Assembly: GCF_000227315.1 (NCBI RefSeq)
Contig: NZ_JH165063.1
Location: 13,334-65,563 of the forward strand
Length of the DNA stretch: 52,230 nt
Direction of reading: 5' to 3'
From: Peptoniphilus indolicus ATCC 29427
Lineage (GTDB): Bacteria; Bacillota; Clostridia; Tissierellales; Peptoniphilaceae
Shown here in pieces: positions 36,755 through 41,684 of the stretch. Under the pieces are notes generated by a model. It was not told the origin of the DNA and searched no databases. It saw nothing but the letters and a program-made list of their open reading frames with translations. How positions within the stretch are numbered: position 1 is the first letter of the stretch; every line of letters begins with the position of its first letter. The position numbers and the translations under genes were made by a program.

Positions 36755-36784
36755 TTGAGACTGTAAAATAGTTTGTGTATGACG

Positions 36785-36820
36785 AATCCTCCTGATAAGA
36801 TAATACTAATCAGGAGGATT
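36785..36820 (+). promoter_or_regulatory. Hairpin sequestering the transposase ribosome binding site
   Basis: A perfect 12-bp stem (AATCCTCCTGAT at 36785-36796, ATCAGGAGGATT at 36809-36820) buries AGGAGG, the ribosome site for the ATG at 36826. Transcripts entering from outside would contain both arms and be poorly translated, a known safeguard in several IS families. Confidence 0.75.
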
Positions 36821-36825
36821 TTAAT

Positions 36826-38039
36826 ATGTCAAGGAAAAGACCGGAAACCAGACTAAATAAAATATCAAAGATGCTAATCGAAGAATACCAACCGGAAACT
36901 GTACAAGATCTGCAAGATGCATTAAAAGACATTTTAGGGGACACTACGGAGCAAATGTTAAAAGCAGAACTAGATGAGCATTTAGAATATGAATATGTTG
37001 AAAAATCATTATCACTAAACACTAGGAATGGTTCAAGTAAGAAAACCGTCAAACCATCTTATGGGAGATATAGATCTAGCTATACCAAGAGATAGAGAAG
37101 GCTCCTTTGAACCACAAGTTCTTAAAAAATATGAAAAAGACATATCAAACATAGAAAATCAAATAATATCTATGTATGCCAAAGGAATGACAACAAGAGA
37201 CATATCAAGTAATGTCAAAGAAGTATATGGATTTGGAGTATCAGAAGGTATGGTAAGTAAAATAACCAATAAAATACTTCCAACAATAGAAGAGTGGCAA
37301 AATAGACCTTTAGAAAAAATCTACCCTATGCTGTTTTTAGACACAATCCATTACTATGTAAGAGAAAATGGTATAATAGTAAAAAAAGCAGTATATATAG
37401 CCTTAAGATACAATTTAGAGGGCTTTAAAGAGATATTAGGTATGTGGGTTGGAGAAAATGAATCAAGCATACTGGCTCTTAGTATTAAATCAGCTAAAAG
37501 AAAGAGGATTAGAAGATGTATTCATAGTTTCAACAGATAACTTAACAGGATTTAGTGAAGCTATAGAATCAGTATATCCAAAGGCAGAAATACAAAAATG
37601 TATAATCCATCAAATAAGAAAATCAACAAAATTTGTATCATATAAAGATATAAAAGAACTAATGAAAGACTTAAAATCAGTATATAAAGCACCTACAGAA
37701 GAACTTGCCTCAATAAATTTAGATATTTTCGAAGATAAGTGGGGTAAAAAGTATCCAATGTGTGTTAACTCTTGGAGAAATAATTGGGCTGAACTATCCA
37801 CCTATTTCAAATATCCGGAAGGAATAAGAAAACTAATATATACAACAAATGCCATGGAAAGCTTTAACAGGCAACTCAGAAAAGTAACGAAAAACAAGAC
37901 AATATTTCCTAACGACTATTCCCTACAAAAGAGCTTGTACCTTTCAATGGTAGATGCATCTAGCAAGTGGGCCACTAGAATAAGGGGCTGGGATAAGATA
38001 TTGTCGCAATTAACAATATTTTTTGAAGGCAGAATATAA
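36826..38039 (+). pseudogene. IS256-family transposase with two frameshifts
   Basis: DDE transposase split over three frames (36826-37095, 37028-37540, 37449-38039). The catalytic residues are all visible: Asp in MLFLDTIHYYV, Asp in FIVSTDNLTGF and Glu in NAMESFNRQLRK, plus the family CxxH in QKCIIHQIRKS. The first break is an extra G in GGG at 37063-37065 (one G less gives YGDIDLAIPRD). The second, near 37466-37471, looks like loss of AA (AGCAAATAC to AGCATAC). Repairing both gives 404 residues, the normal length. As it stands, no full transposase can be made. Confidence 0.88.
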
Positions 38040-38298
38040 TTTTTTGCCTTCAACATAATAAAAAAACAATTAGGCAAAAAAAGGTGGATTTTTAGTATAA
38101 ATCTTGACCTTTTAATTTAGTTGTGCCAAAATTAGTTTACAAAGATTCTAAAATTGAATTTTTGAATATATTAAATTTTAAGATATTTTTTAGAAAAATA
38201 TTAGCCATATCCTATCAGGAGGGGCTGATACACAAAACTTTTCACATTACATACACTTACCTTTTAACACTACCTACAGACCCATTTATTTTTGTTTT

Positions 38299-41200
38299 CT
38301 ATGCTTCTTCTGTTCCTGTTTCTACTTCTGCTTCTTTTGAAATTTCTTCTACAGACTCTAAATCTTTTGATTCTTCTGCTATATTTTCTTCTGTAACTTC
38401 TAATAATGTTTCATCAGAAGGTCTAACCATTTTTAGCAACTCTTTATTTTCTTTATCTTTTTGTTTTACTTCTTTTTCTCTATTTGTAAAATCTTCTGAA
38501 CCTACTATTTCTATTTTTGTATCTCCATCAACTGATTTTTCATATTTAAATGTTTCTTCTGTGTAATCTTCAGGAGCTTTTTCTACATAATCTTCATCCC
38601 ATGTTCTTGTTTTCTTCATTGTTTCATCTGATTTTAAGAAGTTATCATATGTTTTAAAGTTAGGGTCTGATGTGTATAGTTTACCATTTCTAAATACCTT
38701 TGGGTCATCATGTGTTACGTCTATATGATACCATTTTCCGTCAACCTTAACTGCATTCCATGCGTGGTTCTGTTGGTCTGTACTTTGAATATTAAAGTTT
38801 TCGGCTTTAATTTTCTTGTGCTTTTCTTCTAGTTTTTTAGCTCTCATATCATCATCTTTTATCTTATTTGGTGATATGTGGAATCCTACTACTACTTTTG
38901 AGTCCAAGCCTGCTCTTTCTGCCATTCTTGCAAATGTCATTGCATAGGCTTCACAGACCCCACCATCTCCAAATAGGATTGAACTTGGAAGTTGTTCATT
39001 ATAATTTTTTCTTTCTAAGTCTACTTTGTTATCATTAACTTTATAGTTTGTATTTTCTATGATGTAGTCATGAATTACTTTAACTTTTTGTACTTCTGTT
39101 AAATCCTTACCTTCTATATTTTCTTTAATATACTTATCTATTTTATCTTCTATTTGTTTTAAAGTTTCCTTATTCTCACCATAATTAAATGTTAATTCTA
39201 CATTCCCTTTTCTGTCATTTTCTGTTAAGTTATTTATAGAATCCATTGTAGTATAATATGTGAAATTCCAGTTCCTAACATATCTTACGTTTGCATCTGT
39301 AGATTTATTGTTAAGTTCTGTAATTACATCTTTTACTTCTCCAACCTTAGCTACAAATTGTGCTTGTGGTGCAAGATAATAGATGTGTTTCTTTAAAAAT
39401 TCTTTTAAACCTTCTTTATTACCCGTAAAATCTCTTTCATTGAACTTTAAAACTTTATCATAATCTATTTTATCTTTCTTTATTTCTGCAATTGTAACAG
39501 AATCCATTGTTTTTTCTGTAACTTCTTCTTTTTCTTGTTCTTTTTCTTGTTCTTCTTTTTCTTTTTCAGCTAGTTTTTCTTCTTTTAATCTGTTAATTTC
39601 TTCTTTTGTCTTGATATCTGTTAGAAATTCTATGTCTTTGATACCCTTTTCTGTTAATTCTCTAATTGCATCTGCTCTTGCTTCTGCTAGTGCTAATTTA
39701 TGTTGTTCTAATCTTTTTAGACCCTCTTTTTCTATTTCTTCTTTTGTTTTTAAATTATCTAAGAATGAAATATCTTGTATACCCTCTCTTTGTAATAACT
39801 CTTTATAGCTTTCTAGCATTTCTATTCTATCTGTTTGTTCTCTTGCTGCTTGTTCTCTTGCTGCTTGTTCTCTTGCTGCTTGTTCTCTTGCTGCTTGTTC
39901 TCTTGCTGCTTGTTCTCTTGCTGCTTGTTCTCTTGCTGCTTGTTCTTTTGCTGCTTGTTCTCTTGCTGCTTGTTCTTTTGCTGCTTGTTTGTGTTCTTCT
40001 ATTTTCTTTTCTACTTCTCTGTTTAGTTCTTCTACTGTTTTGTAATTATAGATAAAATCTGTTTCTTTTACCCCTGCTGCTTGTAGTTTTTGTAGTGCTT
40101 CGTTTTGTGCTAATTTTAATTTCTTTTGTTTTTCTTGTTCTTCTTTTTGTTTTCTTTCTAATTCTTTTTGACGAACTGCTTTTTCATGTGCGATTCTATC
40201 TCTTTCTTCTTGTGCTTTTATTGCATTTTCATATAGTTGCTTTATAATATATGGATTTCCATTTTCTAAAATTGCATATTCTGTGGCTTTATCATTAATA
40301 CCCATCTTCCTTAGTTGGTCGATATATGCATCTTTTAACCCTCTAAATAACTCTCTGTCTGGTTTTCCAATTGTTTCTTTATATTTTGTTACATCTGGGA
40401 AGTCATCTTCTAATGGTGCTACAAATTCTGGTTTTTTTTCTGATGGTGCTGGTTTAAGATTAATTTCTCCATCTTTTGTTTCTGTTAAGTGTTTTAATTG
40501 TTCTTCTGTATATTGTCCTTTTACATCTTTATAATCTTCTTCTCTGTTGTATTGTTCAAAGTCTATTGGGTTTTCATCATAACCTGTAATTATTTCTATT
40601 TTTGTTTTTTTCCTACTATCTTCTGTTTCTGTTAAGTGTTTTAGTTGTTCTTCTGTATATTGTCCTTTTACTTCTTCTTTATTGTATTGTTCAAAGTCTA
40701 TTGGGTTTTCATCATAACCTGTGATTATTTCTGGTTTAAATGGTTTTATTGGTTTTAATGGTTCTACTTTTTTATTGTCTTTTGATTTCTCTATTTTCGG
40801 TTCTTGTTTTGTTGTCTTTTGGTCTTTATATATTAATTCTGCTAAATCTTCAAAATATCTATTTTCCCATTCTTTAAATTCTACATATTCGTATGATGTT
40901 TGTACTTCTGCTTTCTTTAAGTTGTCTTTTGTTTCTTCTTCTATTGTGTGTAGTGCAAATTCTGCTTTTACTTCTTTATCTGATTTGATTTGTGATGCAA
41001 AGTAACCCTCTTTTGTGTTAATTAAGATTTGTTTTGTTTCTGGGTGTTTATAATACCCTATGTTTAATACTTTTGCTAAATCTGATAGTCTAAAATAGTT
41101 TCTTCCATTGATTAGAAAACCCTTTAAGTTAAAGTATTTTCCGTTTACCATTATTTTATGTTTTGTATTTAGTACTAATGTATTTAAAAAGTTTCCTTCT

Positions 41201-41544
41201 TTTGCTTGTGTTTCTAATACTGTTTTTAATGCTTCTCTATTTTTAACATCTGTGCCTAGTTTGATTTCTTGTTTTGCATCATCAAAGTTGATTTTAACCC
41301 CTTTGCTTGCGTTTGCATTGATTATGTTTACAAATTCTCTTAATTGTATATAGTTTGTTCCCCCAATTTCTACATTTTGCATATTGCTGGATTTTTTATT
41401 TTCTAGGTTTATTTTCTTTGTTGTTTCTTTTATTTTGAGGTTGTTTTGTCCTACCCCTTGTACTGAATTTGTGTTTGCTACTGTTCCTAATAGTGTTCCA
41501 AATACAATCCCTTTTAGTATTACATTCTTTACGTTTTCATTCAT
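38299..41544 (-). CDS. Large secreted repeat protein with GA-like modules and a transglutaminase-like domain
   Basis: A 1081-residue exported protein. Signal segment 1-30; copper-amine-oxidase-N-like stalk about 55-180 (VNGKYFNLKGFLINGRNYF); duplicated unit EIITGYDENPIDFEQYN about 270-355; helical modules resembling albumin-binding GA domains about 473-515, 570-615 and 612-655 (EALQKLQAAGV, KTVEELN; DAIRELTEKGIKD, KTKEEIN); between the first two, ten (K/R)EQ-type pentapeptides. Transglutaminase-like core about 800-960 with Cys in GGVCEAYAM, His in NHAWNAV and Asp in YHIDVTHDDP, so potentially active. No LPXTG or SLH anchor. I chose the ATG at 41544 because AAAGGAAA precedes it; 13 upstream in-frame codons lack a ribosome site. 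It is flanked by IS debris, with opposite orientation to its left neighbours. A role in host-protein binding is inference. Confidence 0.8.
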   Translation of the reverse strand: MNENVKNVILKGIVFGTLLGTVANTNSVQGVGQNNLKIKETTKKINLENKKSSNMQNVEIGGTNYIQLREFVNIINANASKGVKINFDDAKQEIKLGTDVKNREALKTVLETQAKEGNFLNTLVLNTKHKIMVNGKYFNLKGFLINGRNYFRLSDLAKVLNIGYYKHPETKQILINTKEGYFASQIKSDKEVKAEFALHTIEEETKDNLKKAEVQTSYEYVEFKEWENRYFEDLAELIYKDQKTTKQEPKIEKSKDNKKVEPLKPIKPFKPEIITGYDENPIDFEQYNKEEVKGQYTEEQLKHLTETEDSRKKTKIEIITGYDENPIDFEQYNREEDYKDVKGQYTEEQLKHLTETKDGEINLKPAPSEKKPEFVAPLEDDFPDVTKYKETIGKPDRELFRGLKDAYIDQLRKMGINDKATEYAILENGNPYIIKQLYENAIKAQEERDRIAHEKAVRQKELERKQKEEQEKQKKLKLAQNEALQKLQAAGVKETDFIYNYKTVEELNREVEKKIEEHKQAAKEQAAREQAAKEQAAREQAAREQAAREQAAREQAAREQAAREQAAREQTDRIEMLESYKELLQREGIQDISFLDNLKTKEEIEKEGLKRLEQHKLALAEARADAIRELTEKGIKDIEFLTDIKTKEEINRLKEEKLAEKEKEEQEKEQEKEEVTEKTMDSVTIAEIKKDKIDYDKVLKFNERDFTGNKEGLKEFLKKHIYYLAPQAQFVAKVGEVKDVITELNNKSTDANVRYVRNWNFTYYTTMDSINNLTENDRKGNVELTFNYGENKETLKQIEDKIDKYIKENIEGKDLTEVQKVKVIHDYIIENTNYKVNDNKVDLERKNYNEQLPSSILFGDGGVCEAYAMTFARMAERAGLDSKVVVGFHISPNKIKDDDMRAKKLEEKHKKIKAENFNIQSTDQQNHAWNAVKVDGKWYHIDVTHDDPKVFRNGKLYTSDPNFKTYDNFLKSDETMKKTRTWDEDYVEKAPEDYTEETFKYEKSVDGDTKIEIVGSEDFTNREKEVKQKDKENKELLKMVRPSDETLLEVTEENIAEESKDLESVEEISKEAEVETGTEEA
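39841..39990. repeat. 15-bp tandem repeat, 10 copies, inside the surface protein gene
   Basis: Ten head-to-tail copies of a 15-bp unit (plus strand TCTTGCTGCTTGTTC, with TCTT/TTTT variants encoding Arg or Lys). Each encodes five residues such as REQAA. The unit is a multiple of three, so slippage would change coil length by five residues without breaking the frame. Confidence 0.95.
40481..40732. repeat. Direct repeat of about 105-117 bp inside the surface protein gene
   Basis: Copies at 40481-40597 and 40628-40732 are nearly identical and differ by a 12-bp in-frame length difference (extra DYKD-type residues in one). They encode the duplicated EIITGYDENPIDFEQYN to GQYTEEQLKHLTET unit. Confidence 0.85.
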
Positions 41545-41600
41545 CTTATATTTCCTTTCTTTTCTTTTTGATGGGAGTACCATCAGCCTTTTTAGTGTCC

Positions 41601-41684
41601 TTAAATTCTTTTGTATTTACAATATTTGTTAGACTTATTAGTACTAGACCTGTTATGATGGTTGCTAGTTTTAAATTTTTGCAT
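41601..41684 (-). CDS. Possible 27-residue leader peptide upstream of the surface protein gene
   Basis: A small frame on the leader of the surface-protein transcript: ATG at 41684 with AGGA 6 bp upstream, basic product starting MQKFKTSNHHNRSS and ending at 41601, 56 bp before the main start. A candidate -10 (TATACT, minus strand) lies at 41706-41711. No homologue is recognised. It may be fortuitous. Confidence 0.25.
   Translation of the reverse strand: MQKFKTSNHHNRSSTNKSNKYCKYKRI

What the first reader, a model, noticed from the sequence alone, without database searches (positions are those of the whole stretch)
38299..41544. 1081-residue secreted protein joining GA-like modules to a transglutaminase-like core
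Three helical modules (pattern A..EA...L...GI.., then KT.EE.N) resemble the albumin-binding GA module known from surface proteins of Finegoldia magna and streptococci, but with a shortened middle. They flank a pentapeptide coil and precede a transglutaminase-like domain with Cys, His and Asp all in place. A protein that binds host albumin or a similar ligand and then crosslinks or cleaves would be a new combination. No wall anchor is visible.
Basis: partly seen in the sequence, partly recalled or inferred. Interest (0 to 1): 0.65.

Follow-up and report, generated by a model that had tools for sequence, protein, structure and literature searches.

The report
Surface transglutaminase-fold enzyme on GA-module stalk
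An anaerobic bacterium of the Peptoniphilaceae makes a large secreted protein in which a transglutaminase-fold enzyme is carried by three shortened relatives of a known albumin-binding module; the modules look more like a stalk than an albumin trap, and related bacteria already mount other enzymes on such modules.

Summary
The minus-strand ORF (38299-41544, 1081 codons) encodes a signal-like start, a Cu_amine_oxidN1-like N-domain, an acidic linker, module 1, a ten-fold pentapeptide helix, modules 2 and 3, and a transglutaminase-fold domain with Cys/His/Asp in place. The modules are real GA-type relatives: Pfam PF17573 (GA-like) matches, though barely over its cut-off; the stretch scores 26.1 bits against at most 13.0 in 1996 scored shuffles; and an AlphaFold2 model of module 2 superposes on the F. 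magna GA module at 0.9 A over 50 residues. PF01468 does not match. All three modules are three residues short between the conserved Gly and Lys-Thr, around helix 2 and its loop, where albumin binding mainly resides, so albumin capture is unlikely. The enzyme domain is closest to S. pyogenes TglA (Z 19.5).

The exact fusion was not found elsewhere (130 family genomes, 249 order genomes, 113 TG ORF records), but 5 of 19 other GA-like proteins fetched from the family are GH101, GH31 or subtilase enzymes. I read it as a surface TG-fold enzyme on a GA-type stalk: a new variant of a known kind.

The parts
38299..41544 (-). whole gene, 1081 codons plus stop (open frame to 41583)
   Evidence: ribosome site before 41544 read by eye
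41455..41544 (-). signal-peptide-like start (Lys-containing n-region, hydrophobic stretch IVFGTLLGTVA)
   Evidence: hydropathy; no signal-peptide program was available, so inferred
41014..41376 (-). Cu_amine_oxidN1-like (PF07833-like) N-terminal domain, two similar halves
   Evidence: BLAST to family members; of five such members scanned, three pass the PF07833 cut-off (L007, L028, L032) and two fall under it (L029, L036); aligned. P0001 itself gives no PF07833 hit at E<=1 and hhalign to L027 is weak (probability 13.5%)
40474..40731 (-). acidic linker with two repeats (EIITGYDENPIDFEQY...KGQYTEEQLKHLTET)
   Evidence: best other match in 130 family genomes E 0.0018 at 29% identity, in PDB sequences E 0.078
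40000..40134 (-). GA-type module 1 (P0001 484-528)
   Evidence: 17.3 bits with GA-like HMM; fold not modelled
39831..39989 (-). ten pentapeptide repeats (R/K)EQAA, probably a rigid single helix
   Evidence: tandem repeat; E to R/K spacing of four resembles (EAAAK)n helical linkers (recalled); not modelled
39697..39837 (-). GA-type module 2 (P0001 583-629)
   Evidence: model residues 1-50 match 2j5y and 2vdb_B, rmsd 0.9 over 50 residues
39568..39702 (-). GA-type module 3 (P0001 628-672)
   Evidence: Pfam PF17573 best stretch 628-669; 23.1 bits; in the model but not matched separately
38554..39516 (-). transglutaminase-fold domain with N-terminal extension (P0001 690-1010)
38953..38955 (-). codon of catalytic Cys (P0001 C877, only Cys in the protein)
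38764..38766 (-). codon of catalytic His (H940)
38719..38721 (-). codon of catalytic Asp (D955)
38302..38553 (-). acidic C-terminal tail, no anchor motif seen
   Evidence: its first 20 residues are at pLDDT under 50 in the model, the rest was not modelled

Best explanation
It is a secreted, probably cell-surface-associated thiol enzyme of the transglutaminase superfamily. The catalytic domain sits at the far end of a helical stalk built from three shortened GA-type modules and one rigid pentapeptide helix; a Cu_amine_oxidN1-like domain forms the other end. The enzyme attacks an amide or peptide carbonyl of a target protein with Cys877, helped by His940 and Asp955, forms an acyl-enzyme, and then hydrolyses it or passes it to an amine. 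Sequence or models show the domain order, the GA type of the modules (fold modelled and matched for module 2), the three missing residues and the complete triad. That the modules act as a stalk rather than an albumin trap, that the N-domain holds the protein to the cell surface, and that the enzyme is active and on what, are inferred.
For: Triad invariant in 23 of 23, and single-Cys protein. TG-fold model: pLDDT 76.5, pTM 0.78; best match S. pyogenes TglA 9crn, Z 19.5, 236 aligned, rmsd 4.4, next 4xz7 at Z 11.9. Profile hit to 9crn E 1.7e-29. GA-type fold of module 2. Modules 1 and 3 are three residues shorter than 20 GA-like modules (20 of the 27 collected), and module 2 has the same short form. 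PF17573 was used as a stalk domain in PMC9210967 (passage). In five family enzymes GA-like sits between the enzyme and the C-terminus, a stalk position. A family protein, L027, has Cu_amine_oxidN1 + TG without the middle, so the GA/coil middle looks like an inserted spacer. Family relatives of the N-domain also occur with NlpC/P60, glutaredoxin and (as a PF07833 match) GA modules.
Against: No anchor motif is visible and the N-domain is only weakly assigned. No experiment. PF17573 passes its cut-off by 0.4 bits and Foldseek's own E-values for the module model are weak. F. magna PAB, the best-known protein with this module type, does bind albumin, and its GA module matches the PF17573-type profile strongly (E 1.6e-22), so descent from an albumin binder is likely. 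The start region is a modest signal peptide. The enzymatic outcome (peptidase, deamidase, crosslinker) cannot be told from the fold.
Confidence: 0.58

Rival explanations
1. One reading: the modules capture host serum albumin (or bring an albumin-bound cargo) and the TG domain then crosslinks or cleaves a nearby host protein.
For: The modules' own profile finds the PAB GA module (1gab) at E 7.2e-5; module 2 superposes on GA at 0.9 A; PAB GA binds albumin (PMC3962080, passages).
Against: All three modules are three residues short around helix 2 and its loop, the region that mainly makes the albumin contact. The contact residues I recall for PAB (Phe27, Ala31, Leu44; recalled, no call) appear replaced or absent in modules 1 and 2 (by eye).
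Confidence: 0.12
2. The modules bind a different ligand (another plasma or matrix protein, or the bacterium's own surface), making the protein a targeted enzyme.
For: Three diverged copies keep L, G, F, KT and EE while the presumed albumin face changed; other family enzymes also carry GA-like modules.
Against: The kept positions look like core and helix-cap positions of the fold (inference); no ligand-specific pattern was found; no orthologue was found to test conservation of a surface.
Confidence: 0.2
3. The protein acts on the bacterium's own wall or surface proteins (maturation or crosslinking) and has nothing to do with a host.
For: A relative of the N-domain occurs with the wall-enzyme domain NlpC/P60 (L036); pseudomurein endoisopeptidase PeiP is a distant fold match (8z4f, E 5.7e-4).
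Against: The PeiP match is far below TglA. The other GA-like proteins I scanned in the family are surface-type proteins or secreted glycosidases and proteases, which suits outward-facing roles better.
Confidence: 0.1

Closest known systems
Streptococcus pyogenes TglA (PDB 9crn), transglutaminase-like
   Same: TG-fold domain including part of the N-terminal extension: Z 19.5, 236 residues aligned; profile E 1.7e-29
   Different: 17% identity in the fold alignment; the chain has only 379 residues, of which I saw just the aligned parts; no paper on its function was among the rows listed
GA module of F. magna protein PAB (1gab, 2j5y, 2vdb) / Pfam GA-like PF17573
   Same: module 2 model superposes at rmsd 0.9 over 50 residues; PF17573 25.4 bits over cut-off 25
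   Different: three residues fewer around helix 2 and its loop; in the model helix 3 of module 2 runs straight into module 3; albumin contact region not kept
GA-like modules on secreted enzymes of the same family (GH101, GH31, subtilase)
   Same: PF17573 module on a large secreted enzyme in a spacer position: L076, L081, L082, L083, L085
   Different: different enzymes; one canonical-length GA-like stretch each, C-terminal of the enzyme; here three short ones, N-terminal of the enzyme
L027 (genome G129), Cu_amine_oxidN1 + Transglut_core, 416 aa
   Same: same two end domains in the same order
   Different: lacks the linker repeats, GA modules and coil; its N-domain is a clear PF07833 match, ours is not

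Membership tests
Transglutaminase-like superfamily (PF01841) | Pfam profile over its curated cut-off | tested here: met
   54.2 bits against 23; 57.9 bits on DNA
Transglutaminase-like superfamily (PF01841) | Cys-His-Asp triad | tested here: met
   C877, H940, D955 invariant in 23 of 23; in 56 rows Cys and Asp invariant, His in at least 90%
Transglutaminase-like superfamily (PF01841) | papain-like TG fold | tested here: met
   AlphaFold2 model, 9crn Z 19.5; human TG2/TG3/FXIII about Z 8-9
Transglutaminase-like superfamily (PF01841) | crosslinking, deamidase or peptidase activity | not testable with these tools
   needs assay
GA-like (PF17573) | profile over cut-off | tested here: met
   25.4 bits, cut-off 25, 2 stretches; only marginally over. 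30.7 bits in the DNA search
GA-like (PF17573) | full length between the conserved Gly and Lys-Thr (helix 2 and its loop) | tested here: not met
   modules 1 and 3 are 3 residues shorter than the 20 GA-like modules aligned; module 2 has the same short form
GA module (PF01468) | profile match | tested here: not met
   no match in this gene at E<=1, while another protein of the genome matches
GA module fold (PAB/protein G type) | three-helix bundle superposing on solved GA modules | tested here: met
   for module 2 only: 2j5y, 2vdb_B rmsd 0.9 over 50. Foldseek itself gave weak E-values of 1.9 and 2.5. Modules 1 and 3 not tested by fold
Albumin-binding protein | binding of serum albumin | not testable with these tools
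   contact region altered; no assay
Cu_amine_oxidN1 (PF07833) proteins | profile match of the N-domain | tested here: inconclusive
   no direct hit and weak hhalign to L027; three of five BLAST relatives scanned pass the PF07833 cut-off
LPXTG wall-anchored surface proteins | C-terminal sorting signal | tested here: not met
   C-terminus is acidic, no motif by eye; no Gram_pos_anchor hit at E<=1

The most novel reading that the evidence does not exclude
The shortened GA modules are a repurposed class that binds a new host or surface ligand and delivers a transglutaminase-fold enzyme to it, so that the protein is a targeted protein-modifying enzyme made by joining a former albumin-binding module to a TG core.
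Probability: 0.2. Interest if true: 0.6.

Novelty: new variant of a known kind. Interest (0 to 1): 0.32.

Why it matters
It shows the GA fold, the best-known albumin-binding module, in a form that has lost part of its albumin contact region and seems to serve as a tandem helical spacer in front of an enzyme. That warns against reading 'GA' hits in anaerobic cocci as albumin binding. It also adds a transglutaminase-fold enzyme to the surface enzymes that carry GA-type modules in the Peptoniphilaceae (a family of human commensals and opportunists; recalled).

Tried and rejected
Albumin capture as the leading reading: put down because of the three missing residues around helix 2 and its loop. Where the gap falls depends on the alignment: the HMM and MAFFT put all three just before Lys-Thr, while the alignment of the modules' own profile to the PAB module puts one before helix 2 and two inside it. 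Both lie in the loop-helix 2-loop stretch.

A GA-like + TG family with orthologues: no full-length relative in 130 family genomes (the best 5 candidates per genome scored) or 249 order genomes, family genomes included (the best 3 scored). P0001 in viral contigs: 84 pattern matches, none confirmed.

Fibronectin-type binding repeats in the linker (resemblance recalled): best match outside the gene in 130 family genomes E 0.0018 at 29% identity, PDB sequences E 0.078 at best, no Pfam hit; dropped.

Histone H1-like HC2 hits fall on the Lys/Glu/Ala-rich stretch and stay far below their cut-offs: composition.

An integrative element at the ssrA 3' end: the last 25 bases of ssrA occur once in the window and its last 20 bases once in the 17 kb locus L186, so no second attachment site was found; only the synteny break is kept.

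Profile comparison A5 against A8 is circular because A8 holds two of the window's modules; not used. One search's profile also holds those two among its 22 rows. In one search the top row (an LRR protein, E 6.9e-6) is many weak stretches, not a module match. In one search the nominal top row, 7ll8_C (Z 9.6), superposes at only 7.6 A. A8 took 20 of the 27 collected GA-like modules; seven duplicates or divergent ones were left out. L111 was dropped from A6 and A10 because its frame holds unread letters.

LapG, VASH, NAT and PNGase rows are general superfamily matches. Absence of other families from the VIA lists proves nothing.

Papers: among the rows listed none was on a GA/TG fusion, and none was on TglA of S. 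pyogenes; listings are partial. PMC13286765 uses 'GA-like' for glycine-alanine-rich stretches (passages), another meaning. PMC8056022 (passage) only lists PF01841 among S-layer protein domains.
Full report
What is there. The finding's interval holds one long minus-strand gene. From the N-terminus: a short signal-like stretch, a domain at about 70-190, a Lys/Glu/Pro linker with two copies of a repeat of about 40 residues, module 1 (484-528), a tandem pentapeptide helix, modules 2 and 3 (583-672), a transglutaminase-fold domain (about 690-1010) and an acidic tail without a visible anchor motif. Its codon third-position GC (0.155) is slightly below that of all seven other window genes compared (0.165-0.208), while its total GC (0.295) is within their range (0.294-0.346); that gives no clear sign of recent foreign origin.

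Organism. Genome G000 has 2.24 Mb in 98 contigs. Contig lengths coincide for G022, G011 and G015 with Anaerococcus octavius, A. degeneri and Anaerococcus sp. Marseille-P3915, so 'same family' here means the family of Anaerococcus, Peptoniphilaceae in the NCBI taxonomy. The genus of the window itself was not identified.

The modules. Pfam lists PF17573 (GA-like) at 25.4 bits, cut-off 25, with two stretches; at E<=0.001 it is the only PF17573 match in the whole genome. PF01468 (GA) does not match this gene at E<=1, although it matches another protein of the same genome. An HMM I built from 27 GA-like modules of the family finds module 3 (23.1 bits) and module 1 (17.3 bits) but not module 2 (-2.7 bits); in 1996 scored shuffles of residues 470-690 the best score was 13.0 against 26.1 for the real stretch. 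A profile of the three modules alone finds the albumin-binding PAB GA module in the PDB at E 7.2e-5 (one LRR protein ranks above it through many weak stretches). The AlphaFold2 model of residues 580-690 (pLDDT 89.6, pTM 0.71, only two rows in the alignment) has a long helix, a five-residue helix, and a third helix that runs unbroken into the next module. VIA-align puts residues 1-50 of it (module 2) on the F. magna GA module 2j5y and 2vdb_B at 0.9 A over 50 residues (Z 8.8 and 9.3). The 18 candidate chains are mostly GA modules, protein G albumin-binding domains and proteins designed from them, 17 of them at Z 5 or more; the nominal top row, 7ll8_C, superposes at only 7.6 A. Module 3 was not matched separately and module 1 was not modelled. 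Foldseek's own E-values were weak (1.9 and 2.5), and Z values for small helical bundles must be read with care, but the matches are specific to the GA type and agree with the sequence.

What differs from a binding GA module. Aligned with 20 GA-like modules (20 of the 27 collected), modules 1 and 3 are three residues short just before Lys-Thr, where the others have an INKA-type stretch; module 2 has the same short form. Another alignment, to the PAB module itself, spreads the gap over the loop before helix 2 and helix 2, so the exact place is not fixed, but it stays within loop-helix 2-loop. [quoted passage not shown] The altered stretch is therefore the one that matters. A large survey of fibrillar adhesins, PMC9210967, used PF17573 as a stalk domain (passage). 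The pentapeptide (R/K)EQAA puts E and R/K four apart, like engineered rigid (EAAAK)n linkers (recalled). I therefore read modules and coil as a stiff helical stalk, while keeping another ligand open.

The enzyme domain. Transglut_core scores 54.2 bits. C877, H940 and D955 are invariant in all 23 proteins of the first alignment; in the 56-row alignment Cys and Asp are invariant and His is in at least 90%. C877 is the only cysteine in the protein. The model of 690-1030 (pLDDT 76.5, pTM 0.78) is closest to S. pyogenes TglA, 9crn (Z 19.5, 236 aligned, rmsd 4.4; next 4xz7 Z 11.9; LapG and human transglutaminases about 8 to 9.6); the profile gives E 1.7e-29. This gene and L067 of genome G059 share an insertion of about 30 residues before the His. 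Whether the enzyme hydrolyses, deamidates or crosslinks cannot be read from this.

Relatives and novelty. In 130 family genomes 31 have a match at E<=1e-8 to some part of the protein, in the rows shown the TG or the N-terminal region, none full length apart from the gene itself (best 5 candidates per genome scored). In 249 order genomes, family genomes included, 16 match at E<=1e-12, again none full length besides itself (best 3 scored). The two other genomes of the genus lack it: G001 has only partial matches, G002 none. Among 113 TG ORF records in the loci held (overlapping loci counted more than once), only the three records of this gene carry the GA-like module. So the exact fusion is a singleton in what I could search. 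But of the 19 other GA-like proteins I fetched (best matches, not all of them; scanned; 18 of the 19 match PF17573 as whole proteins) five are secreted enzymes: GH101 in L076 and L083, GH31 in L081, subtilase in L082 and L085. Putting an enzyme and a GA-like module together is thus an existing habit of this family. A family protein, L027, has the same two ends (Cu_amine_oxidN1 and TG) without the middle, and the genome itself has a protein with GA modules and a Cu_amine_oxidN1 domain (L090). The protein looks like one more shuffling of locally common parts.

Place in the genome. Upstream (on the same strand) lie tRNA-Pro, a HAD hydrolase, a VanZ-like protein and the tmRNA gene. In G001 this block is 81.8% identical over 1820 aligned columns, and the alignment stops at the last base of ssrA (window 41929); beyond it G001 has another surface-type protein with SLH and SHIRT domains. 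In G002 the block is also present (tRNA-Pro, HAD, VanZ, tmRNA), and none of the window's genes on the other side of ssrA that were tried was found within the 16 kb fetched; what lies there was not annotated. Downstream of the gene is a Mutator-family transposase in two overlapping frames. The slot after ssrA looks variable; no second attachment site was found.

Verdict. Observation confirmed; fold interpretation right as far as tested; albumin interpretation not supported; novelty limited to a new variant: short GA-type modules as a tandem stalk in front of a TG-fold enzyme.

Noticed in passing
window 36762-38246: Mutator-family (PF00872) transposase read in two overlapping frames (37028-37540 and 37449-38039), with inverted-repeat-like arms (79-83% complementary) within 36762-36810 and 38200-38246, ending about 50 bp after the gene's stop. 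Left as it is.
   Followed up: partly
window 41929; L184 1-7729: Identity with the sister genome G001 stops at the 3' end of ssrA; G001 there carries a 1185-aa frame with SLH and SHIRT domains, so the slot after ssrA seems to hold different surface proteins.
   Followed up: partly
L185 1-16001 (G002): The stretch of G002, filed as the same genus, has 49% GC against about 31% in the window's own genome around the gene.
   Followed up: no
L090 1-2790 (G000 contig C3, 197133-199922): Another surface-type gene of the genome with three or four true GA modules (PF01468) and a Cu_amine_oxidN1 domain; it lies in two overlapping frames and runs off the contig end.
   Followed up: partly
L005 1-2184 (G000 contig C5): Second transglutaminase-fold protein of the genome, with List_Bact repeats and a SHIRT domain.
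   Followed up: no
   Followed up: partly
window 41549-41683 (-): A second, overlapping signal-peptide-like frame (LKLATIITGLVLISLTNIVNT) just upstream of the gene's start, without an obvious start codon; perhaps a leader remnant.
   Followed up: no
L067 1688-4519 (genome G059): 944-aa frame with a YSIRK-type signal (just under cut-off) and a TG domain that shares the long insertion before the catalytic His.
   Followed up: no
L036 532-2007; L029 1117-2055: Relatives of the N-domain (PF07833-like, under its cut-off in these two) are joined to NlpC/P60 and to glutaredoxin in this family, so it looks like a general secretion/surface module.
   Followed up: no
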